DNA from: Burkholderiaceae bacterium
GTDB lineage: Bacteria; Pseudomonadota; Gammaproteobacteria; Burkholderiales; Burkholderiaceae_C
Assembly (NCBI GenBank): GCA_017992055.1
Contig: JAGOPK010000003.1
Location: forward strand, 310,001 to 374,000
DNA: 64,000 bases
Direction: 5' to 3'
Shown in pieces: positions 5,999-37,935 of this stretch. Within the stretch, counting starts at the first letter, position 1; each line of letters opens with the position of its first letter. The translations under genes were made by a program, and so were the position numbers. The notes below the pieces were generated by a model, which was given only the letters and a program-made list of their open reading frames with translations, did not search any database and had not been told where the DNA came from.

Positions 5999-6008
5999 GG
6001 GGACACAC

Positions 6009-6700: not shown

Positions 6701-6701
6701 G

Positions 6702-14115: not shown

Positions 14116-14134
14116 ACACCGGAAGGACCAGATC

Positions 14135-17973: not shown

Positions 17974-17980
17974 TCCCCGC

Positions 17981-18883: not shown

Positions 18884-20305
18884 TCAATGCGACGCCAGGC
18901 CGGCCTGCGCCAGCCGCAGGCGGGGCAGGCGCAGCGCGCTGGCCGCGCCCAGCAGCAGCAAGGCCGCCAGCGGCCACAACGCCTGGCTGCCCATGCCGAT
19001 GCCGGCGCCCAGCACCAGGCCGACCGCCACCACGGCCAGGGCGCCAGCCACCTGCTGCACCGCACTGGCCACGCCGGCGGCGCTGCCGGCGTCGGGCAGG
19101 GGCACGTCCTGCAGGGTCAGCGCGGTCAGCGGCGGACCCACCAGGCCCAGCCCCAGGCCCAGCAGGCCATGGGCCAGCAGCATGCCGGGCCACAGCGGCG
19201 CGCCACCCGGCAGCACCCAGGCCGTGACGGCCAGCGACAAGGCCTGCAAGCCCACGCCCCACAGCAGGGTGCGCGAGCCGTGGCGCTGCATCACCCGCTG
19301 GCCCAGCCAGCCCACGCTGACCATCGCGCCCAGCGCGATCGGCAGGCACAGCAGCGACATCTGCCAGGCCGCCAGGCCGCGGCCCTGCTGCAGCGCGAAG
19401 GTGGCGACAAACAGGTAGCCGGGCACGATGCCGTTGAGCAGCAGGCTGCTGAGCAGGCCGCGCCGCAGCGCCAGCAACTGCAGCAGGCCCGGCCGCAGCA
19501 GGGCCGCGCCGTCGTGTCGGTCGCGCCAGCGCCAGTAGGCCCAGGTCAGCGCGGCCAGCGGCGCGCTGGCGGCCAGCAGGCCCAGGCACCAGGCCGGCCA
19601 GTGCCATTCGGGCCCCTGGATCAGCGGCAGCATCAGCGCGCCCAGCACCGCCACCGACAGCGCCATGCCCGGCAGGTCCAGCCGCTGCGCGCCGCCGGCC
19701 AGCGCCACGTCGCGCGGCAGCAGCCAGGCCCCGGCGGCCAGGCTGAACAGGCCCACCGGCAGGTTGATCAGAAAGCACAAGCGCCAGCCCAGGTCGGGCG
19801 GCGCGGCGGCGATCAGCGCGCCGCCGATCACCGGGCCCAGCGCCGCCGACAGCCCGCCCAGCACGCCGAAGATGGCAAACACCCGCACCCGTTCCTCGGG
19901 CGGGTACAGGCGCTGCATCAGCGCCATCACCTGCGGCACCATCAGCGCCGCGCAGGCGCCCTGCAGCAGGCGGGCGACAACCAGGCCGCCGGCATCGGAC
20001 ACCAGGCCGCAGGCCAGCGAGGCCAGCGTGAACGCAGCCACGCCGACCAGGAACAGCCGGCGGTGGCCGTAGAGGTCGCCCAGGCGGCCACCGGTGATCA
20101 GCACCACGGCAAAGCTCAGCACATAACCCGCCACCAGCCACTGCACGGCCGCGGTGCCGGCGCCCAGGCCCTGCTGGATGGCCGGGATGGCGACGTTGAC
20201 GATGGTCACGTCCAGCAGGTCCATCACAAAGGCCAGGGCCACCACGGCCATGGCCAGCGTGCGCCGGCGGCCCTGCAGCGCGCCGGCGCTGTCCTGGACG
20301 CTCAC
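18884..20305 (-). CDS. DHA2-family (EmrB/QacA-like) MFS transporter
   Basis: The 473-residue protein has about 14 predicted membrane helices and the DHA2 motifs LLDVTIVNVAIPAIQQGL (motif D1) and GGRLGDLYGHRR (motif A). I chose the GTG at 20305 because it overlaps the stop of the upstream gene (GTGA); the longer frame would overlap that gene by over 100 bases. The family mostly exports hydrophobic aromatic compounds by proton antiport. As the last gene of the glycoside run it could remove toxic aglycone released by the deglycosidases, which is an inference. Confidence 0.88.
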   Translation of the reverse strand: MSVQDSAGALQGRRRTLAMAVVALAFVMDLLDVTIVNVAIPAIQQGLGAGTAAVQWLVAGYVLSFAVVLITGGRLGDLYGHRRLFLVGVAAFTLASLACGLVSDAGGLVVARLLQGACAALMVPQVMALMQRLYPPEERVRVFAIFGVLGGLSAALGPVIGGALIAAAPPDLGWRLCFLINLPVGLFSLAAGAWLLPRDVALAGGAQRLDLPGMALSVAVLGALMLPLIQGPEWHWPAWCLGLLAASAPLAALTWAYWRWRDRHDGAALLRPGLLQLLALRRGLLSSLLLNGIVPGYLFVATFALQQGRGLAAWQMSLLCLPIALGAMVSVGWLGQRVMQRHGSRTLLWGVGLQALSLAVTAWVLPGGAPLWPGMLLAHGLLGLGLGLVGPPLTALTLQDVPLPDAGSAAGVASAVQQVAGALAVVAVGLVLGAGIGMGSQALWPLAALLLLGAASALRLPRLRLAQAGLASH

Positions 20306-21327
20306 GTCGCCGGTTGGGCCGGCGCCGGATGCGCGGCCAGGATGCGCCGCGCCAGCGCCTGGTGCTTGCGCACCATCTCGAAGGCATCGGCCTTGCTGTA
20401 CAGATGGCCTTCCCACTCGCTGGACATGTAGCCCGAGTAGCCGCCGCGCTGGAACACCGGCAGCAGCTGCTCGTAGGGGATCGAGGTCTCGTTGCCCTCG
20501 TCGTCGAAGTCGTAGAACTTGCCGTGCACGTGGATCACCTGCGGCATGATCGCGGCCCAGGCCTCGGGGTCGCCGGGGCTGAGGATGTTGAACATCACCG
20601 ACAGCGCGCTGACCACGGTGGGATCGGCGCCCAGCGGCTCGACGCGGCGGGCGAATTCGGCGCGCTTCCAGCCGGCATCGCGCGGCAGGTACCAGACCTC
20701 CAGCGCCAGCTGCAGCAGGTGCTCGGGCAGGCCCTGCTCGCGCAGATTGGCCACATAGCTGGCCGGCAGCGTGCGCGCCGAGCAGCCGAAGTCGGGAATG
20801 AAGCCCAGCAGCGGCGAGTTGGCCCGGGCATAGGCCTCGCGGTAGGCCAGCACCGGCGGCGAATCGGGGTTCAGCGGCGCATGGATCTCCGGCCCCATCT
20901 TGATGCCATGCTTCTCGGCCAGCGGCAGCAGGCGCACCAGCACCTCGGCCGGCGCGGCGAACTGGCAGCGCACCACCGGAAAGCCCAGCTTGGCCGCGGC
21001 CTCGATCTGCGGCGCGTGGTAGGCCACGGCCTCGTCCACGCCCATCATCGTGCCGCGGCGCAGCGCCATGTCGGCATTGATGGCCAGGCTGGACGGCTGC
21101 AGGCCATGGCGGGCCAGCAGGTCCTTGAACCAGGCGGCGAAGTCATCGCTGATCTGCGGAAAGCCACGAAAGCTCTGGAAGCCGATGACCTCCAGGCCCG
21201 GGCCGAAGCCGCTTTCGGCCACCTTGGCGACCAGCTGCTCCAGCGTGTACTGGCGGCCATGCCACTCGTTGGTGAAGGCATAGAGCGTGGCGCCCAGCTT
21301 CATGCCGGGGGTGTTGTGGGTGTTCAT
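20302..21327 (-). CDS. TIM-barrel enzyme, putative C-glycoside deglycosidase alpha subunit (copy 1)
   Basis: The 341-residue protein belongs to the AP-endonuclease-2/xylose-isomerase-like TIM-barrel superfamily. Expected metal ligands are Glu147 (PEIH), Asp179 (FIPDFG), a His in HVHGKFY (266/268) and Glu304 (SSEWEG). It is a paralogue of the product at 26708: both have QSF.GFP, RHG, IPD.G, H.H.KFY and the C-terminal SSE.EG. It lies next to a 126-residue protein resembling the deglycosidase beta subunit. Known alpha/beta pairs (DgpB-DgpC, CarB-CarC) cleave the C-glycosidic bond of 3-keto-glycosides. The ATG at 21327 has an AGGA site; an in-frame GTG lies just before it. A plain sugar epimerase is the alternative. 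Confidence 0.72.
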   Translation of the reverse strand: MNTHNTPGMKLGATLYAFTNEWHGRQYTLEQLVAKVAESGFGPGLEVIGFQSFRGFPQISDDFAAWFKDLLARHGLQPSSLAINADMALRRGTMMGVDEAVAYHAPQIEAAAKLGFPVVRCQFAAPAEVLVRLLPLAEKHGIKMGPEIHAPLNPDSPPVLAYREAYARANSPLLGFIPDFGCSARTLPASYVANLREQGLPEHLLQLALEVWYLPRDAGWKRAEFARRVEPLGADPTVVSALSVMFNILSPGDPEAWAAIMPQVIHVHGKFYDFDDEGNETSIPYEQLLPVFQRGGYSGYMSSEWEGHLYSKADAFEMVRKHQALARRILAAHPAPAQPAT

Positions 21328-21339
21328 CACAGTTCCTCG

Positions 21340-21720
21340 TCAGGCCGCCAGCAGGGCCTGGCCGCGCGTGACCCAGGTCAGCATCGGGATGTAGGGCGGG
21401 TAGAGCTTGAACAGCAGCGAGGCCTGCACGGCCTGCTTCGGCCGTGCCGGCAGCGGCACGTGCAGCAGGGCCGAGTCGAGCACGAACCAGGACTCGCCGG
21501 TCAGCCCGGCCAGGGCCTGCAGCGGCCAGCGCTGGCCGTTCAGCTCCAGCTCGGCCGCGTCCAGCGGCACGGCCTGGCCGTCCAGCGTCAGCTCGGCAAA
21601 CTCGACCACCGACAGCGGCATCGAGCGGTACCAGGGCAGGCGCACGTCCAGCACCAGTTGATCGCCGTCCAGGCGCGTGCCGGCGTTGTTGATCAGCGCA
21701 TCGCTGAAGGTGTTTTTCAT
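21340..21720 (-). CDS. Putative C-glycoside deglycosidase beta subunit (copy 1, DUF6379-like)
   Basis: The 126-residue all-beta protein contains LDVRLPWYR (residues 24-32) then LSVVE and a closing YPPYIPMLTWVT. The same pattern (RLPYYR, LSIVE, ISYLPWVPTT) occurs in the product at 26290, so the two are paralogues. Small beta-sandwich proteins of this kind, found beside a TIM-barrel partner, form the beta subunit of C-glycoside deglycosidases, completing the active site. The ATG shares a base with the stop of the upstream dehydrogenase gene, and the alpha subunit starts 12 bases after its stop. Assignment is by recall of the family, not by a search. Confidence 0.7.
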   Translation of the reverse strand: MKNTFSDALINNAGTRLDGDQLVLDVRLPWYRSMPLSVVEFAELTLDGQAVPLDAAELELNGQRWPLQALAGLTGESWFVLDSALLHVPLPARPKQAVQASLLFKLYPPYIPMLTWVTRGQALLAA

Positions 21721-22892
21721 CAGGTTTCCTTGGGCAACTTGACCCAGCGACCGCCGCGCCGCGCCGAGGCCTGCACGGCCTCGATGAACTGCACGCCGCG
21801 CAGGCCGTCGGCCAGGCTGGGATGGTGGGCCGCGCGCTCGGCTCGCGCGCCACCGGGGCGGGCCGCGCGCAGCTGCTGGGCGACCTCGGCATAGAGGTTG
21901 GCAAAGGCCTCCAGATAGCCTTCCGGATGGCCGGACGGCAGGCGCGACAGCCGTGCCGCGGCGCTGCCGGCGGCGGCCGTGCCACGCTCGATCACCCGCG
22001 TGGGCTGGCCCAGCGGCGTGTGCAGCAGGCGGTCGGGCTGGCGCTGGCTCCAATCCAGGCCGCCGCGGCTGCCGAAGACACGGATGCGCAGGTCGTTCAG
22101 ATGGCCCGGTGCCACCTGGCTGGCCCACAGCAGGCCACGCGCGCCGCTGGCATAACGCAGCATGACCTGGGCGTTGTCATCGACCAGGCGGCCGGGCACA
22201 AAGCTGCCCAGCTCGGCCAGCACCTCGGCCACCGGCTGGCCGGTGATGTAGTCGGCCAGCTGCCAGGCATGGGAGCCCACGTCGCCGATGCAGCCGCCGC
22301 CCGACTGCGCCGGGTCGGTGCGCCAGGCGGCCTGCTTCTGACCGCCGCGCTCGATGGGTTCGGCCAGCCAGTCCTGCGGGTACTCGACCTGCACCACGCG
22401 CAGCTCGCCCAGCTGGCCCTCGGCCACCATCTGGCGCGCCGCACGCACCATTGCATAGCCGCTGTAGTTGTGCGTCAGCGCAAACACCCGGCCCTGGCGC
22501 CGCGCCAGCGCCAGCAGCTTCTTGGCATCGGCGCTGCTGGTGCTGAGCGGCTTGTCGCACAGCACATGGATGCCGGCCTTCAGAAAGGCCGTGGCCACCG
22601 GCGCATGCAGGTGGTTGGGCGTGACGATGGCCACCGCCTCGATGCCATCGGGCCGCTGCGCCTCGGCCGCCGCCATGGCGGCGTAGTCGTCGTAGATGCG
22701 CTCCGGCGCCAGGCCCAAGACCAGGCCCGAGCGCTGGGCCTTGGCCGGCGTGGCCGACAGCGCGCCGGCCAGCAGCTCGTAGTGGCCGTCCAGGCGCGCG
22801 GCCAGGCGGTGCACGGCGCCGATGAAGGCGCCCTCGCCGCCGCCCACCATGCCCAGGCGGATGCGTGCCGGCGGTCTGCGTGCTCCGGCCAT
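21720..22892 (-). CDS. Gfo/Idh/MocA-family NAD(P)-dependent sugar dehydrogenase
   Basis: The 390-residue protein has an N-terminal Rossmann fold (RLGMVGGGEGAFIGAVHR), the family motif HVLCDKPLS with the catalytic-type Lys near residue 125, and a C-terminal alpha/beta domain with GGGCIGDVGSHAWQLADYITG. Members oxidise ring or hydroxyl carbons of sugars and inositols; in the puerarin pathway DgpA of this family makes the 3-keto-glycoside needed by the deglycosidase. It shares one-base stop/start overlaps with the GMC gene before it and the beta-subunit gene after it, so it is translated as part of that unit. It is cytoplasmic with no export signal. Confidence 0.85.
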   Translation of the reverse strand: MAGARRPPARIRLGMVGGGEGAFIGAVHRLAARLDGHYELLAGALSATPAKAQRSGLVLGLAPERIYDDYAAMAAAEAQRPDGIEAVAIVTPNHLHAPVATAFLKAGIHVLCDKPLSTSSADAKKLLALARRQGRVFALTHNYSGYAMVRAARQMVAEGQLGELRVVQVEYPQDWLAEPIERGGQKQAAWRTDPAQSGGGCIGDVGSHAWQLADYITGQPVAEVLAELGSFVPGRLVDDNAQVMLRYASGARGLLWASQVAPGHLNDLRIRVFGSRGGLDWSQRQPDRLLHTPLGQPTRVIERGTAAAGSAAARLSRLPSGHPEGYLEAFANLYAEVAQQLRAARPGGARAERAAHHPSLADGLRGVQFIEAVQASARRGGRWVKLPKET

Positions 22893-24580
22893 CACAGGGC
22901 TCCGGCCTTCAGCCGTGCCGCCGCATGCTCGACGGCGCGTGCGGTCAGGGCCATGAAGGTCAGCGAGGGGTTGACCGCACCGGCCGAGGCCATGGCCGCG
23001 CCATCGGTGACATAGAGGTTGGGCAGGCCGTGCACGCGGTTGTGGGCGTCCAGCACCGATTCGGCCGGATCGTGGCCCATGCGCGCCCCACCCTGCACAT
23101 GCACGGTGATGCCGGGCGTTTGCCCCACGCGCATGCTGCGCACGTTCAGCGCGCCGGCGGCCTGCAGCATGGCCGTGCATTCGCGCATTGCGTCCTGCAC
23201 CATCCTGTCTTCGTTGTCGCTGCGGCGGATGTCGAAGCGCAGCTGCGGCAGGCCCCAGGCGTCCTTGGCCTGGGCGTCCAGCGTGATGCGGTTGCCCTTG
23301 CGTGGCAGCACCTCGCAGGCCCCGCCCATGTAGACCACCCAAGGCCCCAGGCCGGCCAGGCGCTTCTTGTAGGCGGCACCGAAGTCCTCGCCCTCGCCGG
23401 CCTGGTCGGTCCAGCCCATGCGCGTGCTGCCGCCCTGGATCACATAGCCGCGGTCGAAGTCCACGCCGGCATCGCGGCCCTTCAGGTTGCGGAAGCGCGG
23501 CATGTACAGGCCGTTGGGCCGGCGGCCGTAGAAGTAGCGGTCCGCCAGGCCGGGCAGGATGCCGAAGGCGCTGCCGCTGTCGTGGTCGCAGATGTAGCGG
23601 CCCAGCGCATCGCCCTGGTTGCCCAGGCCGTTGGCATGGCGGGCCTGGGCCGACTGCAGCAGGATCTTCACGCTGGCCTCGGTGCCGGCGTTGAGGAACA
23701 CCAGGCGCGCCGTGTGCGTGCTGCGCGCGCCGGTCTTGGCATCGATGACCTGCACGCCGCTGGCGCGGCTGCCGGCCTCGTCGAGCAGCACACGCTCGAC
23801 GATGGCATCGGTCTTCACCGTCAGCAGGCCGGTCTTCTGCGCATCGGGCAGGCTGGCGCTGAGGCTGCTGAAATAGGCGCCGAAGCTGCAGCCGCGCTGG
23901 CAGATGTTGCGGTAGTTGCAGGGGCCGCGGCCGTTGTGCTCGCGCGTGACATTGGCGCTGCGGCCGATGGTCAGGTGGCGGTCGGGCCAGCGTTCCCTGA
24001 CCTTCTGCCGGACCAGCTTCTCGGCCGCGGTCAGCTCCATCGGCGGCAGCAGCTTCATGTCGGGGAAGTGCTCCAGGCCCAGGTTCTCTCCACTGATGCC
24101 CATGTAGGCCTCGACGCGCTCGTACCAGGGCGCCAGGTCGGCATAGCGGATCGGCCAGTCGTTGCCATGGCCGTCCTGCTTGTTGGCCTCGAAGTCCAGC
24201 GGGCTCCAGCGATAGCACTGGCGGCCCCACAGCAGCGAGCGCCCGCCCAGCACGCTGGAGCGGATCCAGCTGTAGGGCTGGGCCTGCACATAGGGCTGCT
24301 CGGGGTCTTTCACCCAGTGGTGCTTGTTGTCCCACTTGAACTGGCCGAAGGGCTGGCGGCTCTGGATCGGATAGTCACGCGCGATCTCGTCGCGCTGGAA
24401 CTGGCCGCGGTGCTGCGCATCCCAGGGCGCGGTGAACTCGGTCTGGTACTGCTGGTGCTGCAGCGGCCGGCTGCGCTCCAGCACCAGCACCTTCAGGCCG
24501 CGCTCGGTCAGCTCCTTGGCCGCGTAACCTCCGGTCATGCCGGAGCCGACGACGATGGCGTCGAAATCGTAGGAACTCAT
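22892..24580 (-). CDS. GMC-family FAD sugar dehydrogenase, large subunit (glycoside 3-dehydrogenase-like)
   Basis: The 562-residue protein has the FAD-binding GSGMTGG at residues 12-18 with Glu35, a second GMC motif (SSVLGGRSLLWGRQ) near 108, and the catalytic pair His494 (TVHVQGG) and Asn537 (NPSLT). Cysteines in GPCNYRNICQRGC near 222-234 could hold a cluster or disulfide, as in related membrane-linked dehydrogenases. With the small subunit encoded just upstream it resembles bacterial glucoside-3-dehydrogenases and gluconate-2-dehydrogenase-like enzymes. Its likely role is to oxidise the sugar C3 hydroxyl. It has no signal of its own, so export would need the partner. Confidence 0.85.
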   Translation of the reverse strand: MSSYDFDAIVVGSGMTGGYAAKELTERGLKVLVLERSRPLQHQQYQTEFTAPWDAQHRGQFQRDEIARDYPIQSRQPFGQFKWDNKHHWVKDPEQPYVQAQPYSWIRSSVLGGRSLLWGRQCYRWSPLDFEANKQDGHGNDWPIRYADLAPWYERVEAYMGISGENLGLEHFPDMKLLPPMELTAAEKLVRQKVRERWPDRHLTIGRSANVTREHNGRGPCNYRNICQRGCSFGAYFSSLSASLPDAQKTGLLTVKTDAIVERVLLDEAGSRASGVQVIDAKTGARSTHTARLVFLNAGTEASVKILLQSAQARHANGLGNQGDALGRYICDHDSGSAFGILPGLADRYFYGRRPNGLYMPRFRNLKGRDAGVDFDRGYVIQGGSTRMGWTDQAGEGEDFGAAYKKRLAGLGPWVVYMGGACEVLPRKGNRITLDAQAKDAWGLPQLRFDIRRSDNEDRMVQDAMRECTAMLQAAGALNVRSMRVGQTPGITVHVQGGARMGHDPAESVLDAHNRVHGLPNLYVTDGAAMASAGAVNPSLTFMALTARAVEHAAARLKAGAL

Positions 24581-24589
24581 GGCGGGCTC

Positions 24590-25204
24590 TCAGAGTTGCA
24601 TCTGGCGCTGCCAGGTCTTGACGTCCACATCACCCTCGAAGCGCCCGGGCACGGCCACATAGGCCAGCTCGGCCTGGATGCCCACGCGCGAGGTGAAGTA
24701 GCCGACCGTGACCAGGTCACGCGCCTTGTGGAAGAACGGCGCCGCCGGGTCGGCCAGGCGGGCGGCCAGGCCACCCGCCTTGTAGTCCTTGATCCCTTCG
24801 CGCAGCGCGCCGAAGACCTCGGCCTGGCGGGCCGGCGTGGCCGCGGCAAAGCCCTGGCCGAAGCGGCGCTGCGCGTCCTCGTCCAGCGCCTTCAGCCCAG
24901 CGACGAAGCGGCTGCGCTCGCTGCCGTTCATCCAGTGGCGGAACATGTCGGCGACGAAGGCCGGCACCTCGGCCTCGGTGGCCCCGGGCGTGTCGGTGGC
25001 CGGGATGACCAGCTCGGCCAGCGCGGTCAGCGTGGGCAACAGCGCAGCTGGCAGATCCTCGGCGGCCGCGGCCTCGGGCTCCTGCGCGCGGCCGGCCGCG
25101 GCCTTGGCCAGCTCCACGGCCAGCGAGTCGCCCATCCACAGCGTGGCGCCGGCGGCGGCGGCAATGCGCTCCAGCAGCGCGCGGCGGTTGATCGTGCCTG
25201 TCAT
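24590..25204 (-). CDS. Gluconate 2-dehydrogenase subunit 3-like small subunit (Tat-type N-terminus)
   Basis: The protein of about 204 residues starts MTGTINRRALLERIAAAAGA, a twin-arginine-like leader. A helical domain follows with LTALAELVIPATDTPGATEAEVPAFVADM, the signature of the gluconate-2-dehydrogenase subunit 3 family. These subunits are needed for folding and Tat co-export of the partner GMC subunit, which starts 9 bases after this stop. Two ATGs are possible (25210 and 25204); I prefer 25204 because the AAGGAG site is 9 bases before it but only 3 before the other. No cytochrome subunit gene is seen nearby. Confidence 0.8.
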   Translation of the reverse strand: MTGTINRRALLERIAAAAGATLWMGDSLAVELAKAAAGRAQEPEAAAAEDLPAALLPTLTALAELVIPATDTPGATEAEVPAFVADMFRHWMNGSERSRFVAGLKALDEDAQRRFGQGFAAATPARQAEVFGALREGIKDYKAGGLAARLADPAAPFFHKARDLVTVGYFTSRVGIQAELAYVAVPGRFEGDVDVKTWQRQMQL

Positions 25205-25218
25205 GGCCATCGTCTCCT

Positions 25219-26274
25219 TCACAGGCCCAGCATGCGGCGGATCTGCGCGGCATCGTGGGTGCCGCCGGCAAAGTCGTCGAAGGCCTTGTCGGTGACGCGG
25301 ATGATGTGGTCGCGGATGAAGGGCGCGCCCTCGGCCGCGCCCTGCTCGGGATGCTTGAGGCAGCACTCCCACTCCAGCACCGCCCAGCCGGCAAAGCCGT
25401 ACTGCGCCATCTTGGAGAACACCGCGCGAAAGTCGACCTGGCCATCGCCCAGCGAGCGGAAGCGCCCGGCGCGCTGGGTCCAGGGCTGGTAGCCCGAGTA
25501 CACGCCCTGGCGGCCGCTGGGGCGGAACTCGGCGTCCTTGACGTGGAACACCTTGATGCGCTCGTGGTACAGGTCGATGAACTCCAGATAGTCCAGCTGC
25601 TGCAGCACGAAGTGCGAGGGGTCGTAGGCAATGGCCAGGCGCGGATGCCGGTCCACACGCTCGAGCAGCATCTCGAAGCTGGCGCCGTCGAACAGGTCTT
25701 CGCCCGGGTGCAGCTCGAAGGCCACGTCGCAGCCCGCCTCGTCGTAGGCATCGAGGATGGGCCGCCAGCGCCGCGCCAGCTCGTCGAAGGCGGTCTCGAT
25801 CAGGCCCGCCGGCCGCTGCGGCCAGGGGTAGACGAAGGGCCAGGCCAGCGCGCCGGGAAAGCTGATGCTGGCCTTGAGGCCCAGGTTCTGCGAGGCCTTG
25901 GCGGCCAGCAGCATCTGCTGCACGGCCCAGCGCTGGCGCTCGGCCGGCTTGCCGCGCAGGGCTGCGGGCGCAAACACATCGAAGGCCTCGTCATAGGCCG
26001 GGTGCACGGCCACCAGCTGGCCCTGCAGGTGCGTGGACAGCTCGGTGATCTCCACGCCGTTGGCACGGGCGATGCCGGCGATCTGATCGCAATAGGTCTT
26101 GCTCTGGGCGGCCAGCTCCAGATCGAACAGCCGCGCATCGCCCGAGGGCAGCTGCACACCGCGGTAGCCCAGCGAGGCGGCCCAGCGCGTGATGCCGTCC
26201 CAGCTGTTGAACGGGGCCTGGTCGGAAGCGAACTGGGCCAGGAAGATGGCCGGGCCCTGGAGGGTGGTTGGCAT
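25219..26274 (-). CDS. Sugar isomerase/epimerase-like TIM-barrel protein
   Basis: The 351-residue protein belongs to the xylose-isomerase-like TIM-barrel superfamily but is not a close paralogue of the two deglycosidase-like alpha subunits. The metal site is clear: Glu187 (FELHPGED), Asp218 (YDPSHF), His244 (FHVKDAE) and Glu301 (LEWEC). Proteins of this type sit beside GMC/Gfo sugar 3-dehydrogenases in many genomes and probably isomerise or epimerise the 3-keto sugar. The gene lies between the second beta subunit and the GMC small subunit, all closely spaced on the minus strand. The actual reaction is not known. Confidence 0.8.
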   Translation of the reverse strand: MPTTLQGPAIFLAQFASDQAPFNSWDGITRWAASLGYRGVQLPSGDARLFDLELAAQSKTYCDQIAGIARANGVEITELSTHLQGQLVAVHPAYDEAFDVFAPAALRGKPAERQRWAVQQMLLAAKASQNLGLKASISFPGALAWPFVYPWPQRPAGLIETAFDELARRWRPILDAYDEAGCDVAFELHPGEDLFDGASFEMLLERVDRHPRLAIAYDPSHFVLQQLDYLEFIDLYHERIKVFHVKDAEFRPSGRQGVYSGYQPWTQRAGRFRSLGDGQVDFRAVFSKMAQYGFAGWAVLEWECCLKHPEQGAAEGAPFIRDHIIRVTDKAFDDFAGGTHDAAQIRRMLGL

Positions 26275-26289
26275 GGAGGTCGGGAGTCT

Positions 26290-26679
26290 TCAGGCGAGGG
26301 TCATGCGCTGCGTGCAGCTGGTGGTGGGCACCCAGGGCAGGTAGGAGATGCGCAGCTGCTCGGCCACCACCAGCTCGTGCTCGCCGGCGGCCAGGCCGCC
26401 CGGCTGCAGCACGCTGACCGTGGCCACCTCGCCGAACTCCCAGCGCTGGTCGGTGGCGGCTTCCATCTGGTCCAGCGTCCAGGCGCGGCCACGCAGCGTG
26501 AAGCGCACGGCCTCGCGCGGCGCCTTCACGCCGTCGGCACTGACCGCGATGTCCTCGACGATGGACAGCCACTGGCCGCGGTAGTACGGCAGGCGGATGC
26601 CCAGCTCGTAGCCGGTGATGGCCTCGCCGTCGGCGGTATTGCGCAGCGTGCCGGGCACGATGATGTGTTGGTCGTACAT
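26290..26679 (-). CDS. Putative C-glycoside deglycosidase beta subunit (copy 2)
   Basis: The 129-residue all-beta protein contains ELGIRLPYYRGQWLSIVE near residues 25-42 and ends in ISYLPWVPTTSC. It aligns with the 126-residue product at 21340 around RLP(W/Y)YR and LS(I/V)VE. It follows the second alpha-like gene by 28 bases and precedes the isomerase gene by 15. A GGAG site lies about 8 bases before the ATG at 26679; a longer frame would overlap the alpha gene. The same role is proposed: beta subunit of a heteromeric C-deglycosylation enzyme. Confidence 0.7.
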   Translation of the reverse strand: MYDQHIIVPGTLRNTADGEAITGYELGIRLPYYRGQWLSIVEDIAVSADGVKAPREAVRFTLRGRAWTLDQMEAATDQRWEFGEVATVSVLQPGGLAAGEHELVVAEQLRISYLPWVPTTSCTQRMTLA

Positions 26680-26707
26680 GCTGTGTGCTCCTTCCCGGGG
26701 CCTGCGC

Positions 26708-27691
26708 TCAGGCCTCGCCCAGCAGGCGCTGGAACATGGCGTGCTGGCGCCGCACCTGCTCGCGCGCATCCACCGGATGGGCGTCCTCGATGTGGCGCTG
26801 GCCTTCGTATTCGCTGCTCAGGTGGCCGCGGTAGCCGCCTTCGATCAGCACCGGGATGATTTCTTCGTAGGGGATGGCCGGCTCGTGGCCGCTGTCGTCG
26901 ATCTCGTAGAACTTGGCGTGGATGTGGAAGATCCAGGGCATGAACTCCAGCATGCGCCGCGGATGGCTCCAGATGTTGTGGCGCGTGGTCTCGGCCATCG
27001 CCAGGTCGGCCGGCGTGGCGCCCATCTTGCGGATGTCCATCAGCAGGTAGTCGGTCAGCACCCGCTGCTCATGGGCCTGCAGGATGAACTCGACGATCTT
27101 GGGCGTGGCGCCCATGCGCAGAAAGCGCTCGCGCATCACCGGCGGAAAGCGCTTGGTGTACATGCCCATGTCGGGGATGTAGCCCACGTGGTCGGAGCCG
27201 GTGGCGCGGGTGATCTCGGTGTAGCGCAGGATCCAGGGGTGGTCGAAGTGGAAGGGCGAATGCACCTCGATGCCCATGCGGATGTCCAGCTGTTCGGCCA
27301 GCGGCACGCAGGCCACCACCACCTCGGGCGGCGTGTTGACGATGATGCGCACCACCTTGCAACCCAGGCGGTGGGCCACGCGCAGGTCGCGCTGCAGGCT
27401 GGCCACCATCTCGTCGAAGCTCAGCTTGCGGTGCTTGTGCAGCTTGGTGTCCAGGAACATGTCATGGCACACCGGGTAGGCGCCATGGCGCTCCAGGCTG
27501 GCGAACCAGGCATCGACCTGGTCCTGTGGGATGTCGGGAAAGCCGGTGAAGCTTTGCTCGGGCAGCACCTCGATGCCCTTGGCGCCCAGGCTGGACGCAT
27601 GGGCGATGCAGTCGTCCAGCGTCATCTGGCGCAGAAAGACCTCGACCTGGTAGCTGTAGAGGCTGACGCCCCGCTGGATCTGGTGGTTCAT
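26708..27691 (-). CDS. TIM-barrel enzyme, putative C-glycoside deglycosidase alpha subunit (copy 2)
   Basis: The 327-residue protein has a metal site Glu142 (IEVH), Asp174 (YIPDMG), His256/258 (FHIHAKFY) and Glu294 (SSEYEG) in the same order and context as the copy at 20302. The N-terminal thirds also match (QSFTGFP, ERHG). Relative to copy 1 it differs most in the region after Asp174, which carries ETTRHNIWSHPRRM, likely part of the aglycone pocket. The ATG at 27691 is the first good start; the next gene begins 28 bases after the stop. With the small protein at 26290 it would form a second alpha/beta pair, probably with different substrate preference. Confidence 0.72.
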   Translation of the reverse strand: MNHQIQRGVSLYSYQVEVFLRQMTLDDCIAHASSLGAKGIEVLPEQSFTGFPDIPQDQVDAWFASLERHGAYPVCHDMFLDTKLHKHRKLSFDEMVASLQRDLRVAHRLGCKVVRIIVNTPPEVVVACVPLAEQLDIRMGIEVHSPFHFDHPWILRYTEITRATGSDHVGYIPDMGMYTKRFPPVMRERFLRMGATPKIVEFILQAHEQRVLTDYLLMDIRKMGATPADLAMAETTRHNIWSHPRRMLEFMPWIFHIHAKFYEIDDSGHEPAIPYEEIIPVLIEGGYRGHLSSEYEGQRHIEDAHPVDAREQVRRQHAMFQRLLGEA

Positions 27692-27726
27692 GATGGTCGG
27701 CAAAGTAAGAAGCAAAGGCCGCCGGC

Positions 27727-29004
27727 TCAGGCCCGGGCGGCCTGGGGAGCGGCAGAGCCAGGACGGCGGCGCAGCCCCAGCGTGCCCAGCAGGGCCACGG
27801 CCAGCGACAGCACGCCAAAGGCCACGAAGCCGGCCTTCAGCCCGCCCACCTGGGCCGCCACCAGCGAGACGATGGCCGGCGAGACAAACTGCCCGGCGAA
27901 GAACGACGAGGCCCAGAAGCCCATGCCGCGGCCACGGTGCTCGAAGGCCAGCTTGCTCTGCGCCCAGGCGATCAGCGCCGAGATCACCAGGCCCGATCCC
28001 ATCTGCTGCACGAAGGCAAAGCCCATGGCCTGCTGCACATTGGCCGCCAGGCCGATGCCGCCCAGGCCGATGCCATAGAGCACAAAGGTCAGCAGCAGCT
28101 GGGCCGACGAGCCGAAGCGGCCGGTGGCATAGAACAGCAGGCCGCCCAGCGGCACGCCAAAGCTGGGCACGGCGCTGATCAGGCCGATGGACCTGGGGTT
28201 GTCCACGCCCATCTCCTTGAGCACCAGCGAGAAGTTGATGACCTGCACGAAGTACACATTGGCCAGCAGCAGGGTCACGGCGCAGACCATCAGCATGGTG
28301 GCGGTCGGGAAGGCGCCGGCCACTGCGGTGGGGGTCGCGGGCGCCGCCGCCGCAACCGGCGGAGCATCGTGGGCCGACTCGCGCCTTTGCGGCTCGTACA
28401 GCCAGAACCAGCTGGCCGCGAACAGCGGCAGCGCCACCGCATACACGGCAAACGGCCACTGCCAGCCCAGCGAGGCCAGCCAGCCCGACAGCACCAGCAG
28501 GCCCGAGCCCAGCAGCGAGCCCACCACCGCCTGCACGGTGAGCCAGCGGCGCCGCGCCTGCTCGTCAAAGTAGTCGGCCAGCAGCGTATTGGTGACGGTC
28601 AGGATGCCGGCCTCGGCAATGCCGATCAGCACGCGGCCGGCCACCACCATGCCGAAGCTGTCGACGAAAAACGGCACCAGGCCGCCCAGCGCGTACAGCA
28701 GCATCGAGGCCAGCATCAGCCGGCGCCGGCCCAGCTTGTCGGTGATGACGCCGGCCACCGGGGCCAGCAGCGCGATGCAGGCGCTGGGCGCGGTGATCAG
28801 CAACGGCACCCAGAAGCGCGGATTGTCGATGTCGCCGCGGAAGTGGGCGATCAGCGTCGGCAGGGCCGGGGTCAGCGCGATGATCGCCACCACCGGCAGA
28901 AAGCCGGTGAGCACGAGGATCCAGCCCTGGCGCCAGTCGGCCTGGCGGGCCGGGTGAGCCTGGTGGGCCTGGCCTGCCCGGCTTGCAGCGGTGGCAGCAT
29001 TCAT
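27727..29004 (-). CDS. Major facilitator superfamily transporter (importer-like)
   Basis: The 425-residue protein has about 12 membrane helices with the MFS motif A region (GVITDKLGRRRLML) after helix 2 and the repeat-like segment (AFEHRGRGMGFWASSFFAGQ) in the second half. An insertion between halves is Ala-rich. It sits between the TonB receptor and the second alpha subunit gene, so it probably moves the glycoside or its oxidation product across the inner membrane. It is much shorter than, and unlike, the DHA2 protein at the other end of the run. Confidence 0.85.
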   Translation of the reverse strand: MNAATAASRAGQAHQAHPARQADWRQGWILVLTGFLPVVAIIALTPALPTLIAHFRGDIDNPRFWVPLLITAPSACIALLAPVAGVITDKLGRRRLMLASMLLYALGGLVPFFVDSFGMVVAGRVLIGIAEAGILTVTNTLLADYFDEQARRRWLTVQAVVGSLLGSGLLVLSGWLASLGWQWPFAVYAVALPLFAASWFWLYEPQRRESAHDAPPVAAAAPATPTAVAGAFPTATMLMVCAVTLLLANVYFVQVINFSLVLKEMGVDNPRSIGLISAVPSFGVPLGGLLFYATGRFGSSAQLLLTFVLYGIGLGGIGLAANVQQAMGFAFVQQMGSGLVISALIAWAQSKLAFEHRGRGMGFWASSFFAGQFVSPAIVSLVAAQVGGLKAGFVAFGVLSLAVALLGTLGLRRRPGSAAPQAARA

Positions 29005-29051
29005 CGACGGTCTCCTGGGGTCGTTGTCGTGGGGCGATGCGCCGCAGCCCG

Positions 29052-31295
29052 TCAGAACGAGCTGGTCAGGCGCACGCCGAAGGTGCGCGGCGCGCTGGTG
29101 TTGACCGCGCCCTGCAGGATGTTCACCACCTGCAGCTTGTTCTCGATGTTCTTCACGTACAGCTGGGCGTAATAGTCACCAACCGCCGGCGTATAGGTCA
29201 GGGTCAGGTCGGTCTTGGTGGCCGCCTTCTCCGGATAGCGGAACACCGAGTTGGCCGAGTACGCCGAGCTGAAGTAGGCGCTGGTGTACTTGGTGTTCAG
29301 CTGGGCCTTGACGCTGGCGCCGCTGCCGAACACGAAGTCGTGGCCATAGCCCAGCGCCAGCGTGGTCTTGGGCGCGCGGTCCAGCACCTGGCCCGAGATG
29401 TCCCAGGTCTGCACGCCGCTGGCGTTGTAGGACTTGAAGGTGGTGAACTTGGCGTCGTTGTAGCCGGCGGCCAGCGTGAACACATCGGCCTGCGTCAGGC
29501 GCAGCCGGCCTTCCAGCTCCAGGCCCTTGACCTTGGAGCCTTCGCCGTTGAGCGTGATGGTCGCGCCGCAGTTCTGCGGCACGATGCAGTACACGCCCTT
29601 GACCTGCATGTCCTGGTAGTCGTAGTGGTAGACGCCGGCGCTGAGCTGCAGCCGGTCACCGAAGAAGCGGCCCTTGATGCCGGCCTCGGCGGCCGTCAGG
29701 TTCTCGGGGCGGATGGTCGGGCTGGTGGAGCCGGCATCGTTCATGCCGCCGGCCTTGTAGCCGGTGGAGTAGCTGGCATAGAGCATGGTGCTGCGGTCCA
29801 GGTCGTGCTCGGCGCCCAGGCGGTAGGTGCTCTTGCTGAACGATTCGGCGCGCGTGCCGGTCACCGCATTGGTGGTCCAGTTGAAGGTGGTGTAGGTCTT
29901 CTCGTCGCGGCTGTGGCGGGCGCCAACCACCAGGCGCGTGCTGGGCAGCAGGCTGTAGGTGAGCTGGCCGAACAGCGCCTCGGACTGGTTGGTGGTGCGG
30001 TTGGCCATCCACAGCGGGCCCGGACCCTGCGACACCGCCAGGCCGTCGATCAGGTACTTGCGGCGCAGGTCGATCTCTTCATCCATCAGGTAGGCGCCGG
30101 CCACCCAGCGCAGCGGGCCGCTGGCGGCCGAAGCCAGGCGCAGCTCGTGCGAGGTCTGCTCCACCGGCATGCGCGCCAGGCCCAGGATGCCGTTGGCCGG
30201 GTTGGCGCCCGAGTTGGCCGGGCCGGTGAGGCCGAAGTCCAGATCGGTCTTCAGATAGCCCAGCTGATAGGTCAGCGTGGACCAGCCCAGCTCGGTGTTC
30301 AGCTCGGCACGCAGCATGTCGTGCCGGTTGTTCTTGTCGGTGTTCTTGATGAAGCCGTCGGGACCGGGGAAGGTCAGTGCGGCGCTGGTGCCGATGTCCA
30401 CGCGCACCGGGTTGGCGATGTTCTCCGGCAGGTCGGCCGAGCCGCCCACGCCGGTGCCGGCGTAGAAGTTGCGCATCGGCAGCGTCGTATAGCCGGTGCC
30501 GCCCTGGCGGCTGTGCTCGCCGGTGACCAGCAGCGTGGTGCCGGCCAGCGGCTTCCACAGCAGCGACAGGCGTGCCGCGGCATCGTCCTGGTCTTCCAGC
30601 GGCTGGCTCTGGCCGCCCGACTTCAGGTAGCTGCCACGCTTGTTGCTGGAGAAGGCCGCGCGCAGCGCCAGCGTCTCGGACAGCTTCTCGTTGAACACGC
30701 CCTCGGTGCGCAGCGTGCGGTAGTTGCCCAGCTCCAGCGTCAGCTTGCCTTCGCGGCGGAACACCGGCCGGTTGCTGATCAGGTTGATGGCGCCGCCGGT
30801 GGCGTTCTTGCCGTACAGCGTGCCCTGCGGGCCACGCAGCACTTCCACGCGGTCGATGTCCATGAAGGCGCCCAGCTGGGCCTCGGGCCGGCCGATGTAG
30901 ACGCCGTCGATGTGGAAGGCATTCGACGGATCACCGCGCTCGGTGGTGTCCACCGCCATCACGCCGCGGATGTTGATCAGGTTGCGGCCCGACTCCTGCG
31001 AGATCTGCACATTGGGCACCAGCTCGGTGAGGCCGCGCACGTCGGTGATGCCGGCGTCCTTCAGGCCGTCGCCGGTGACCACGGTCAGCGCCAGCGGCGT
31101 CTTCGAGGCCGGCTGGGCGATCTTCTGCGCCGTCACCACCACCTCCTGCGAGCCGTCGTCCTTGACCTTGGCCGCCGGAGCGGCGGCCGGCGGCGTCTGC
31201 GCCAGCACCGGCAGTCCGGCGATCAGCAGGCCGGCAGCCAGCAGCTGCAGGGCCAGGGGATTGAGCTTGGTGTTCGGCAATTGCGGCTTGTTCAA
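29052..31295 (-). CDS. TonB-dependent outer-membrane receptor
   Basis: The mature protein follows a signal peptide (LNPLALQLLAAGLLIAGLPVLA, cleavage near residue 32). It has a TonB-box-like EVVVTAQK at 51-58, a plug with RGVMAVDTTERGDPSNAFHIDGVY and VEVLRGPQGTLYGKNATGGAIN, and a C-terminal beta-barrel ending in Phe. I chose a TTG start at 31295: it has a GGAG site about 9 bases upstream and gives a compact leader, whereas the in-frame upstream ATG adds 25 residues before the signal peptide. The receptor is of the sphingomonad/catabolic type rather than a siderophore receptor, and heads the glycoside run. Its ligand is probably a bulky plant glycoside. Confidence 0.88.
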   Translation of the reverse strand: MNKPQLPNTKLNPLALQLLAAGLLIAGLPVLAQTPPAAAPAAKVKDDGSQEVVVTAQKIAQPASKTPLALTVVTGDGLKDAGITDVRGLTELVPNVQISQESGRNLINIRGVMAVDTTERGDPSNAFHIDGVYIGRPEAQLGAFMDIDRVEVLRGPQGTLYGKNATGGAINLISNRPVFRREGKLTLELGNYRTLRTEGVFNEKLSETLALRAAFSSNKRGSYLKSGGQSQPLEDQDDAAARLSLLWKPLAGTTLLVTGEHSRQGGTGYTTLPMRNFYAGTGVGGSADLPENIANPVRVDIGTSAALTFPGPDGFIKNTDKNNRHDMLRAELNTELGWSTLTYQLGYLKTDLDFGLTGPANSGANPANGILGLARMPVEQTSHELRLASAASGPLRWVAGAYLMDEEIDLRRKYLIDGLAVSQGPGPLWMANRTTNQSEALFGQLTYSLLPSTRLVVGARHSRDEKTYTTFNWTTNAVTGTRAESFSKSTYRLGAEHDLDRSTMLYASYSTGYKAGGMNDAGSTSPTIRPENLTAAEAGIKGRFFGDRLQLSAGVYHYDYQDMQVKGVYCIVPQNCGATITLNGEGSKVKGLELEGRLRLTQADVFTLAAGYNDAKFTTFKSYNASGVQTWDISGQVLDRAPKTTLALGYGHDFVFGSGASVKAQLNTKYTSAYFSSAYSANSVFRYPEKAATKTDLTLTYTPAVGDYYAQLYVKNIENKLQVVNILQGAVNTSAPRTFGVRLTSSF

Positions 31296-31402: not shown

Positions 31403-31417
31403 AGGTAAGCGCTTTCC
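31403..31417. promoter_or_regulatory. LacI-family operator candidate
   Basis: AGGTAAGCGCTTTCC is centred on AAGCGCTT, the CG-centred palindrome bound by many LacI-family repressors. It lies 108 bases upstream of the TonB receptor start on that gene's side of the intergenic region. The flanking bases are only partly symmetric. Confidence 0.55.
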
Positions 31418-31527: not shown

Positions 31528-31543
31528 AGGAAAGTATTTTCCT
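31528..31543. promoter_or_regulatory. Perfect inverted repeat near the LacI gene
   Basis: AGGAAA-GTAT-TTTCCT is a perfect 6-bp inverted repeat with a 4-base spacer, 63 bases before the LacI ATG. It is AT-rich against a G+C-rich background. It may be a second operator for autoregulation or a site for another factor. Confidence 0.5.
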
Positions 31544-31605
31544 ACAACACCCGCCGGTGCCACAATGGCCGGACAACGACTGTTGTGCAAAGGGAACCCG
31601 CCGCC

Positions 31606-32598
31606 ATGAAGGAACTGCCGTCGATCAATGCCGTGGCCGAGCTGGCCGGGGTGTCGATCGCCACCGTCTCGCGCGTGCTGAACAACAGCAAGCCGGTCAA
31701 CGAGTCCACCCGCCTGCGCGTCGAGGCCGCGGTGCTGAAGCTGGGCTACCGCGCCAATCCCTTCGGCCGCAGCCTGGCCAAGGCGCAAAGCCATCTGCTG
31801 CTGGTGCTGGTGCCCGACTTCTCCAACCCCTTCTATGCGCAGATCCTGAAGGGCGTGGAGTCGGTGACGCGCAGGCGCGGCTACAAGATCCTGCTGGCCG
31901 ACGACTCGCTGGCCTGGACCGAGCGGGGCGAGCCCATGGACATGTCGTACTTCCAGCTGGTCGACGGCGTGATCAGCCTGACCCATGTGGACGAGCGGCC
32001 CGAGCTGCTGGCCGAGCTGGATGCCCACCCCTGGGTGGCCTGCTCGGAGTTTCCGCCGCGCGTGGCCGTGCCGCATGTCAGCATCGACCACCGCCAGGCG
32101 GCCATCGACGCCGTGCAGTACCTGCTGAACCGCGGCCATCGGCGCATTGCGCTGATCGCCGCCGAAGAAGGTTATCTGTGGGCCCAGCAGCGCCGCGAGG
32201 GCTACGAGCTGGCGCTGCAGCGCGCCGGCATCGCCATCGAGCCCGAGCTGGTGCGCGTGGCCGTGGACACCGACTACGAATCCGGTGGCCAGGCCGCCGG
32301 CAGCCTGCTGGCGCTGACCGCGCTGCCCACCGCGGTGTTCGCGATGTCGGACACGCTGGCCATCGGCGCGATCAAGGCCTTCCGCCGCGCCGGCCGGCGG
32401 GTGCCGGAAGACATCGCCGTGGTCGGCTTCGACAACCTGCCGCTGGCCGCGGTGTTCGAGCCGGCGCTGACCACCATCGCCCAGCCCATGCGCGAGCTGG
32501 GCGAGGCCGCGGCCGAGCTGCTGCTGGAGCGCCTGGCCGGCGCCCAGCCCGCCTCACGCACGCTCAAGCATGCGCTGGTGCTGCGCGAGTCGGCCTAG
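31606..32598 (+). CDS. LacI-family transcriptional regulator
   Basis: The 330-residue protein has an N-terminal LacI helix-turn-helix (AVAELAGVSIATVSRVLNNSK) at residues 9-29. A periplasmic-binding-protein-like sensor domain begins near 62 (LLLVLVPDFSNPFYAQILKGVE), with the C-terminal VFAMSDTLAIGAIKAFRRAG and VVGFDNLPLAAVFEPALTTI typical of sugar-responsive members. It is divergent from the TonB receptor/glycoside run, which is the probable target. The ATG at 31606 is preceded by AAGGGA 11 bases upstream; a GTG at 31585 is possible. The gene ends one base before the convergent SnoaL-like gene. Confidence 0.9.
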   Translation: MKELPSINAVAELAGVSIATVSRVLNNSKPVNESTRLRVEAAVLKLGYRANPFGRSLAKAQSHLLLVLVPDFSNPFYAQILKGVESVTRRRGYKILLADDSLAWTERGEPMDMSYFQLVDGVISLTHVDERPELLAELDAHPWVACSEFPPRVAVPHVSIDHRQAAIDAVQYLLNRGHRRIALIAAEEGYLWAQQRREGYELALQRAGIAIEPELVRVAVDTDYESGGQAAGSLLALTALPTAVFAMSDTLAIGAIKAFRRAGRRVPEDIAVVGFDNLPLAAVFEPALTTIAQPMRELGEAAAELLLERLAGAQPASRTLKHALVLRESA

Positions 32599-36633: not shown

Positions 36634-37836
<1,203 letters not shown>

Positions 37837-37935
37837 GGGGGTCTTGCGCTCGGATCGGGCTGCGGCGCAGTGTAGGAACGGGCCCGGCCGGCAGCCACGC
37901 AGGCGCCGGCACAGCAGGCTTGCACCGCGCGGCAT

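What the first reader, a model, noticed from the sequence alone, without database searches (positions are those of the whole stretch)
18884..31295. Eleven-gene glycoside locus with two C-glycoside-deglycosidase-like alpha/beta pairs
Seen: two paralogous TIM-barrel genes (20302, 26708), each beside a paralogous ~127-residue beta protein sharing RLP(W/Y)YR and LS(I/V)VE. They are embedded with a Gfo/Idh/MocA dehydrogenase, a two-subunit GMC dehydrogenase, another TIM-barrel isomerase, a TonB receptor and two MFS transporters, all on one strand. Known: DgpA-DgpB/C and CarA-CarB/C need a 3-oxidised sugar before the alpha/beta enzyme eliminates the aglycone. Inferred: a complete import-oxidise-deglycosylate-export pathway for plant C- or O-glycosides. 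Duplicated deglycosidases and two alternative 3-oxidases in one operon suggest a broad or two-step substrate range, possibly for di-C-glycosides.
Basis: partly seen in the sequence, partly recalled or inferred. Interest (0 to 1): 0.92.

Follow-up and report, generated by a model that had tools for sequence, protein, structure and literature searches.

The report
Dual-lyase operon for dismantling plant glycosides
This bacterial operon appears to encode a complete oxidise, split, hydrate and reduce route for stripping sugars from plant compounds, with two different sugar-splitting enzymes; the chemistry is known, but this gene combination and the linked pair of enzymes look like a new variant.

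Summary
Eleven closely spaced minus-strand genes include two divergent alpha/beta pairs of the C-glycoside deglycosidase (3-keto-glycoside lyase) family. Both betas pass the CGDB (PF19906) cut-off, both alphas keep all seven metal and catalytic residues, and both betas keep the aglycone tyrosine. The interpretation needs changing. The "other TIM-barrel isomerase" is 68.5% identical to a solved 2-hydroxy-3-keto-glucal hydratase, the step after elimination. The Gfo/Idh/MocA protein groups with Gfo proteins encoded beside that hydratase, so it is more likely the terminal 3-keto-glucose reductase than a second 3-oxidase. Best reading: a full non-hydrolytic route of uptake, 3-oxidation by GMC, elimination, hydration, reduction and aglycone export. 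A divergent LacI gene flanks two operator-like palindromes found nowhere else in the 5.9-Mb genome and repeated in some relatives. The substrate (C- or O-glycoside) and the division of labour between the lyases are inferred; no assay or complex model could be run. New variant of a known kind.

The parts
31585..32598 (+). LacI-family regulator, divergent from the operon; likely dedicated regulator (inferred)
   Evidence: Pfam LacI + Peripla_BP_3; 62-68% identical LacI divergent from the TonB gene in three Ideonella loci
31529..31542 (.). operator-like palindrome GGAAAGTATTTTCC
   Evidence: pattern found at only two places in the own genome, both here
31404..31417 (.). operator-like palindrome GGTAAGCGCTTTCC
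   Evidence: same pattern upstream of the TonB gene in Ideonella aquatica, I. alba and Duganella guangzhouensis
29052..31295 (-). TonB-dependent outer-membrane receptor (glycoside uptake, inferred)
   Evidence: Pfam Plug and TonB_dep_Rec_b-barrel
27727..29004 (-). MFS transporter 1 (inner-membrane uptake, inferred)
   Evidence: Pfam MFS_1
26708..27691 (-). A1: alpha subunit of lyase 1
   Evidence: 8qvc_A E 7.6e-121, 53.7% identity; E/H/D/H/K/E/E site complete; tree
26290..26679 (-). B1: beta subunit of lyase 1 (CGDB)
   Evidence: PF19906 132.4 bits; Tyr33 aligns with PuCGE Tyr39
25219..26274 (-). HYD: probable 2-hydroxy-3-keto-glucal hydratase
   Evidence: 8ro4_A E 2e-165, 68.5% identity
24590..25210 (-). 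GMC small subunit with twin-arginine-like N-terminus
   Evidence: Pfam Gluconate_2-dh3 105.5 bits; RR motif read from the sequence
22892..24580 (-). GMC flavoprotein, probable glycoside 3-dehydrogenase (inferred)
   Evidence: Pfam GMC_oxred_N/C; best solved relatives fructose and FAD-glucose dehydrogenase large subunits
21720..22892 (-). Gfo/Idh/MocA oxidoreductase, probable 3-keto-glucose reductase (inferred)
   Evidence: 3v5n E 1e-146; that sequence is 99.7% identical to the Gfo encoded beside the hydratase on S. meliloti pSymB
21340..21720 (-). B2: beta subunit of lyase 2 (CGDB)
   Evidence: PF19906 41.9 bits; 7dnm_B E 6.3e-10; Tyr31 aligns with PuCGE Tyr39
20302..21327 (-). A2: alpha subunit of lyase 2, AgCGD2-like
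   Evidence: 7dnm_A E 8.5e-73; site residues complete; tree
18884..20305 (-). MFS transporter 2, DHA2/EmrB-like (aglycone export, inferred)
   Evidence: EmrB model 174.7 bits, under its cut-off of 230.2; 54-57% homologues in the Pelomonas and Ideonella clusters

Best explanation
A catabolic operon, probably LacI-controlled, that removes glucose from plant (poly)phenol glycosides without hydrolysis. Proposed steps: the TonB receptor takes the glycoside through the outer membrane. The exported two-subunit GMC flavoprotein oxidises the sugar at C3. MFS1 carries the 3-keto-glycoside inward. In the cytoplasm two metal-dependent alpha/beta lyases (A1B1 and A2B2) eliminate the aglycone and leave 2-hydroxy-3-keto-glucal. 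HYD hydrates this to 3-keto-glucose, the Gfo protein reduces it to glucose, and MFS2 exports aglycone or surplus. Shown here by sequence: family membership, conserved active sites, hydratase relationship, operon packing, operator-like palindromes, conserved association of the two lyase types. Inferred: the reactions, the compartments, C3 specificity of the GMC enzyme, direction of the Gfo reaction, the regulator's role, and that the two lyases split the substrate range (for example by attachment position).
For: CGDB matches for both betas. Solved deglycosidases as best relatives of both alphas. Seven of seven metal/catalytic residues in A1 and A2 and the catalytic Tyr in B1 and B2. Hydratase 68.5% identical to 8ro4. 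Gfo close to a hydratase-linked Gfo. Same gene order from TonB to A2 in Duganella guangzhouensis (L015) and a similar set rearranged in Pelomonas and Ideonella. 3 of 3 CGDB-bearing genomes in the family sample, own genome included, also carry HYD, against 35 of 299 overall. Aromatic-acid genes lie next to the Duganella locus, and a PcaF thiolase lies about 5 kb from this operon. The four-step chemistry is described in PMC10628242 and PMC13273386.
Against: No activity data. No alpha/beta complex model could be made (structure tool off). Identity of the GMC enzyme to the characterised GlycDH was not tested; GMC relatives are very common (702 plasmid records), so the family alone is not diagnostic, and no cytochrome subunit was recognised in the operon. 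HYD plus Gfo also occurs without any A or B homologue in five stretches of 17-21 kb from rhizobia, Azospirillum and Variovorax, so these two do not point to C-glycosides. B2 matches the CGDB model only over positions 25-91 of 112. In the 50 A2-bearing stretches (up to 10 kb either side) only 18 hold an HYD hit (15 at 68-86% identity, 3 at 29%) and 14 a GMCL hit.
Confidence: 0.8

Rival explanations
1. The operon mainly degrades O-glucosides. The CGE-type lyases act on 3-keto-O-glucosides, and C-glycosides are side substrates at most.
For: PuCGE cleaves both 3-keto O- and C-glucosides (PMC10628242); HYD and Gfo relatives sit together in stretches without any lyase of this family.
Against: Both betas keep the tyrosine called critical for C-C cleavage (PMC13273386), whose loss in PuCGE cost only 2.4-fold on the O-glucoside (PMC10628242; residues). 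A2 lies on the same side of the tree as AgCGD2, assayed on C-glycosides in PMC8563793.
Confidence: 0.3
2. One reading: the Gfo protein is a second, alternative glycoside 3-oxidase of the DgpA kind, so two oxidases feed two lyases.
For: [quoted passage not shown]
Against: Best relative by far is a hydratase-linked Gfo (3v5n, 1e-146) and not DgpA (7xr9, 2.8e-10; 9m3d, 3.8e-12); the A. tumefaciens Gfo of the parallel operon is proposed to act in reduction of 3-keto-glucose (PMC10628242 section 7).
Confidence: 0.15
3. One of the two pairs is not a working lyase: B2/A2 is a diverged or regulatory copy, and only A1B1 acts.
For: B2 is the weaker CGDB match (41.9 bits, positions 25-91).
Against: A2 keeps all seven active-site residues, is better conserved than A1 in one Pelomonas and one Ideonella genome (71-77% against 50-52%), and 45 of the 50 A2-bearing stretches hold a B2 hit.
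Confidence: 0.1

Closest known systems
DgpBC / CarBC / PurBC C-glycoside deglycosidases (PuCGE, MiCGD, AgCGD1, AgCGD2)
   Same: alpha TIM barrel plus CGDB beta subunit, same metal and catalytic residues, same aglycone tyrosine
   Different: here two divergent pairs share one operon with hydratase, reductase, two-subunit GMC enzyme and TonB receptor; A2 is 38.7% and A1 30.1% identical to AgCGD2
Agrobacterium tumefaciens GlycDH-AtOGE-AtHYD-Gfo operon (PMC10628242)
   Same: GMC flavoprotein with small TAT-signal protein, hydratase, Gfo oxidoreductase; same four-step logic
   Different: two alpha/beta CGE-type lyases in place of the unrelated AtOGE; 8BVK (AtOGE) is not among the listed solved relatives of A1, A2 or HYD
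Duganella guangzhouensis FT80W locus (L015)
   Same: same order TonB-MFS1-A1-B1-HYD-GMC small-GMC large-Gfo-B2-A2; A1 86% and HYD 86% identical
   Different: no MFS2 hit after A2; beta-ketoadipate pathway genes lie downstream
Pelomonas sp. KK5 and Ideonella clusters (L011-L014)
   Same: A1-B1-B2-A2 contiguous, with HYD, Gfo, TonB, a GMC protein, MFS1 and MFS2
   Different: different order, two further small TIM barrels in Pelomonas, a more distant GMC protein (33-35%), and the A1 next to A2 comes from another sub-branch

Membership tests
C-glycoside deglycosidase / 3-keto-C-glycoside lyase | beta subunit of family CGDB (PF19906) encoded beside the alpha subunit | tested here: met
   132.4 and 41.9 bits, cut-off 27.6; gaps of 28 and 12 bases to the alphas
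C-glycoside deglycosidase / 3-keto-C-glycoside lyase | alpha-subunit metal site and catalytic pair (AgCGD2 E147, D179, H269, K271, E305; H149, E307) | tested here: met
   all seven identical in A1 and A2; 88 of 99 aligned rows carry the full set
C-glycoside deglycosidase / 3-keto-C-glycoside lyase | beta-subunit tyrosine equivalent to PuCGE Tyr39 | tested here: met
   Tyr33 of B1, Tyr31 of B2; Tyr in 92 of 94 rows, the other 2 have a gap
C-glycoside deglycosidase / 3-keto-C-glycoside lyase | alpha and beta form one complex | not tested
C-glycoside deglycosidase / 3-keto-C-glycoside lyase | elimination activity on a 3-keto-C-glycoside | not testable with these tools
   needs assay
Four-step non-hydrolytic glucoside pathway | 2-hydroxy-3-keto-glucal hydratase | tested here: met
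   by sequence: E 2e-165 to 8ro4, 239 of 349 positions identical; activity not tested
Four-step non-hydrolytic glucoside pathway | GlycDH-type GMC flavoprotein with TAT-signal small subunit | tested here: inconclusive
   families and RR-type N-terminus fit; GlycDH sequence itself not at hand for comparison
Four-step non-hydrolytic glucoside pathway | Gfo-family 3-keto-glucose reductase | tested here: inconclusive
   57.3% identical to 3v5n, a hydratase-linked Gfo; NCBIfam levoglucosan dehydrogenase only 114 of 650 bits; direction not testable
AtOGE O-glycoside eliminase | sequence relationship to AtOGE (8BVK) | tested here: not met
   8bvk absent from the listed solved relatives of A1, A2 and HYD (E limits 0.001, 0.01 and 0.001)
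DgpA-type glycoside 3-oxidoreductase (for the Gfo protein) | closest relationship to DgpA | tested here: not met
   7xr9 DgpA 2.8e-10 and 9m3d DgpA1 3.8e-12 against 3v5n 1e-146
CarA/PurA/G3Ox pyranose-oxidase-type glycoside oxidase (for the GMC protein) | closest relationship to pyranose and glycoside 3-oxidases | tested here: not met
   best solved relatives are fructose and FAD-glucose dehydrogenase large subunits (5.6e-42 and 9.1e-38); 7qf8 'GMC oxidoreductase family protein' 3.4e-15 (recalled, not from a call, as a glycoside 3-oxidase) and named pyranose oxidases 7.1e-12 or weaker

The most novel reading that the evidence does not exclude
The A1B1 and A2B2 lyases are an anciently separated, functionally coupled pair. 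A1B1 is the basic lyase, and A2B2 is an accessory lyase that is useful mainly when A1B1 is present, opening substrates with two or otherwise-placed sugars (C8 against C6, or di-C-glycosides cleaved in sequence). The pair has been kept together in Burkholderiales, Sphingomonadales, Actinomycetota and Chloroflexota.
Probability: 0.25. Interest if true: 0.7.

Novelty: new variant of a known kind. Interest (0 to 1): 0.52.

Why it matters
Aryl C-glycosides resist hydrolysis, and how environmental Gram-negative bacteria recycle them is little described: the C-C cleaving systems characterised in the papers I read come from gut anaerobes and soil Actinomycetota, while homologues in Pseudomonadota are only noted (PMC8563793, PMC12724307). 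This operon puts every predicted step, from outer-membrane uptake to glucose, on one 12-kb stretch next to one probable dedicated regulator. The one-way dependence of the A2-type on the A1-type lyase raises a testable question: what does the second lyase do that the first cannot? It also offers two new lyase pairs for C-glycosylation, since one family member (PuCGE) runs in reverse (PMC13273386).

Tried and rejected
Rejected: two alternative 3-oxidases. Not adopted: a simple A1 = C6-specific, A2 = C8-specific split. AgCGD2 (active on the C8-glycoside, PMC8563793) does lie on the A2 side of the tree, but the Arthrobacter plasmid stretch L062 holds further lyase-like frames within about 12 kb of its AgCGD2-like gene, at least one of them (11509-12996) also closer to AgCGD2 and A2 than to A1, and the AgCGD1 sequence was not at hand. 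The aglycone-pocket residue 248 of AgCGD2 was inconclusive: two alignments place A1 differently. The SMP-30 and GntR genes (17194-18868) were left out: opposite strand, converging on MFS2, with a GntR hit in 1 and an SMP-30 hit in 0 of the 50 related stretches. PMC10653915 (passages), opened because a Sphingobium plasmid ranked first for the GMC protein, gave nothing on this pathway. The flank annotation is partial: several ORFs gave no family and may be wrong-strand ORFs.

Own errors, mended. (1) The MFS2 query was read from 20300 in the wrong frame, so MFS2 rows are meaningless; protein 3 is the same mistake. One search repeats the search in the right frame; the counts for the other genes came out the same. 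(2) Searches count A1 in 31 of 50 stretches, but in L051 the A1 hit is a piece of the A2 gene at a contig end; one search gives 30 of 50, and one search shows an A1-type gene elsewhere in that genome, so the total stays 47 of 50. (3) One search also gave a p-value for 6 double genomes, with the A2 query, confirms only 5 (45-46% identity), and the sixth (G1076) is dropped.

Weak points of counts: the p-values ignore relatedness of genomes. The first scan used two short peptide patterns from A2-type sequences and so misses more distant relatives; AgCGD2-like Arthrobacter genes, for instance, were not in it.
Full report
What is there. Between 18884 and 31295 eleven ORFs run on the minus strand: TonB receptor, MFS1, A1, B1, a TIM barrel, GMC small subunit, GMC large subunit, Gfo/Idh/MocA, B2, A2, MFS2. 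Gaps from the TonB gene to A2 are 47, 35, 28, 15, 8, 9, -1, -1 and 12 bases, and MFS2 probably starts at GTG 20305, overlapping the A2 stop. By spacing this is an operon. Pfam gives CGDB for both small proteins (132.4 and 41.9 bits, cut-off 27.6), AP_endonuc_2 for the three barrels (below its cut-off for A2), GMC_oxred N and C, Gluconate_2-dh3, three Gfo domains, MFS_1, and TonB plug and barrel.

The two lyases. Among solved structures A1 is closest to 8qvc_A (E 7.6e-121) and B1 to 8qvc_B (6.7e-21). A2 is closest to 7dnm_A (8.5e-73) and B2 to 7dnm_B (6.3e-10). Chain B of 7dnm is named AgCarC2, and PMC10628242 (passages) gives 7DNN as AgCGD2 of Arthrobacter globiformis, whose active site is described in PMC8563793 (passages). 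Aligned on AgCGD2 numbering, Glu147, His149, Asp179, His269, Lys271, Glu305 and Glu307 are all present in A1 and A2, and in 88 of 99 aligned rows. The beta tyrosine called mechanistically critical for C-C cleavage (PMC13273386, part 1 of 3 read), whose change to Phe in PuCGE cost only 2.4-fold on a 3-keto-O-glucoside (PMC10628242 passage), is Tyr33 of B1 and Tyr31 of B2, and Tyr in 92 of 94 rows, the other 2 being gaps. Single chains with both parts exist: 8qrz matches B1 at its residues 8-124 and A1 from 143 on, and two open frames of an Arthrobacter plasmid do the same, which supports the pairing indirectly. In a tree of 99 alphas, A1 sits in a starred set of 39 rows (37 A1-type and two solved chains, 8qvc and 9m3b) and A2 in a starred set of 40 proteobacterial A2-type rows; AgCGD2 lies on the A2 side of the branch (98/90) that divides the tree. 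The tool warns that long branches are unsure, and one row labelled A2 by best hit (L048, 6252) falls on the A1 side.

The rest of the pathway. The 'isomerase' at 25219-26274 matches 8ro4, named 2-hydroxy-3-keto-glucal hydratase, at E 2e-165 and 68.5% identity. PMC10628242 section 7 describes an A. tumefaciens operon with GlycDH, the eliminase AtOGE, the putative hydratase AtHYD and a Gfo protein for reduction of 3-keto-glucose; PMC13273386 restates the four steps. A 2024 Angewandte paper by Kastner and others is cited there (reference seen); I have not read it. The Gfo protein here is closest to 3v5n (1e-146), a sequence 99.7% identical to a Gfo encoded beside the hydratase on S. meliloti pSymB, and far from DgpA (2.8e-10). 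I therefore read it as the reductase. The GMC large subunit resembles fructose and FAD-glucose dehydrogenase large subunits more than pyranose oxidases, and its partner has a Gluconate_2-dh3 domain and an RR-type N-terminus. That fits a GlycDH-like dehydrogenase acting in the periplasm, but GlycDH itself could not be compared, and GMC relatives at up to 50% identity are common (702 plasmid records).

Distribution. CGDB is rare: 3 of 299 genomes in a family sample including the own genome and 1 of 369 in a class sample, the own genome only. The four other genomes of the same genus in the family sample have neither CGDB nor the hydratase. The hydratase is commoner (35 of 299), and all 3 CGDB genomes have it (p 0.0015, relatedness ignored). 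Hydratase plus Gfo also stand together, without any A or B hit, in five stretches of 17-21 kb from Agrobacterium, Variovorax, Sinorhizobium, Peteryoungia and Azospirillum. A scan of genome contigs with an A2-type alignment gave 50 loci. Duganella guangzhouensis has the same order from TonB to A2; Pelomonas KK5 and three Ideonella have A1-B1-B2-A2 contiguous with HYD and Gfo. By best-hit label the contiguous A1-B1-B2-A2 order occurs in 10 of 50 loci, Actinomycetota among them (L048 with the caveat above, and two of the ten in one Naasia genome). HYD is hit in 18 of the 50 stretches (15 at 68-86% identity, 3 at 29%) and GMCL in 14, so the full set is not universal.

The one-way link. Of the 50 A2-bearing loci, 30 hold a separate A1-type alpha in the fetched stretch. 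For the other 20 the genome or record was searched: 17 have an A1-type gene elsewhere (E 4.8e-101 or better) and 3 do not (Neorhizobium, Agrobacterium vitis, one MAG). That is 47 of 50 loci, or 43 of 46 genomes by record title, four loci being from one Naasia and two from one Amnibacterium. In 298 genomes of the family around G1007, searched with A1, 15 have an A1-type gene; 5 of these also have an A2-type one (45-46% identical to A2), 10 do not, and no genome showed an A2-type gene without A1; the one genome with only a weak hit, G1203, is not A2-type (28%) (Fisher p 1.6e-7, relatedness ignored). In a 398-genome phylum sample 3 genomes had A1, of which 2, the own genome included, also had a second type. 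So A1 often stands alone, and A2 hardly ever does. This is the part that I think is new. PMC8563793 reports two lyases from one Arthrobacter, and PMC11170127 (passages) several DgpBC sets in gut Catenibacillus.

Regulation. A LacI gene diverges from the TonB gene. The intergenic stretch has two palindromes, 31404-31417 and 31529-31542. The pattern GGWAAGYRYTTWCC, which I drew up after seeing the sites, occurs in the 5.9-Mb genome only at these two places (the backward control gave 1 match) and in the window only there even with one mismatch (0.08 expected from shuffles). It recurs twice between LacI and the TonB gene, or at the start of the longest LacI frame, in Ideonella aquatica and I. alba, and once upstream of the TonB gene in Duganella; there is no exact match in the Pelomonas KK5 or I. 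livida stretches, and one in an unrelated place of L022. I infer a dedicated regulator.

Context. Next to the Duganella locus lie genes over the cut-offs for PcaD, catechol 1,2-dioxygenase, muconate cycloisomerase, PcaCD and PcaB. In the window a PcaF-type thiolase over its cut-off lies at 36634-37944. This fits use of aromatic aglycones but is not proof. GC content is 0.74-0.75 left of the operon and falls to 0.68 over its upstream end, a mild sign, with the patchy distribution, that the locus may have been acquired.

Verdict. The corrected reading is a complete non-hydrolytic glycoside pathway with probable hydratase and reductase identified, an oddly conserved second lyase, and a probable dedicated LacI switch. 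Membership in the lyase family is met on the three features tested by sequence; complex formation and activity are untested. Novelty: new variant of a known kind.

Noticed in passing
window 1901-17095: Genes that look like an extracellular contractile injection system: eCIS_core domain protein, a tube-protein match just under its cut-off, a baseplate OB-domain protein, and a DUF6519 protein.
   Followed up: no
window 17194-18868: FadR-type GntR regulator and SMP-30/gluconolactonase gene pair converging on the operon's last MFS gene; hardly seen with related loci. A second SMP-30 gene lies at 57300-58196.
   Followed up: partly
window 36634-38807: 3-oxoadipyl-CoA thiolase (PcaF) over its NCBIfam cut-off (36634-37944 -), divergent from an enoyl-CoA hydratase-family gene (37920-38807 +).
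   Followed up: partly
window 41983-47255: PdxA-family dehydrogenase, iron-containing alcohol dehydrogenase and DHDPS-family protein on one strand, possibly a side pathway for small acids.
   Followed up: no
L062 10188-12996 and 19684-23559: Arthrobacter sp. StoSoilB13 plasmid carries about four lyase-like alphas within 13 kb, two of them in frames that also hold a beta part, one 95% identical to AgCGD2 and one broken between frames.
   Followed up: partly
L053, L054, L055: A very divergent A2-side branch in Naasia and Amnibacterium has Gln in place of the catalytic His149 and Gly in place of Glu307 (EQDHKEG), perhaps another reaction.
   Followed up: no
L008 11837-13389: Two extra small TIM-barrel genes in tandem downstream of A2 in the Pelomonas cluster, absent from the window operon.
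   Followed up: no
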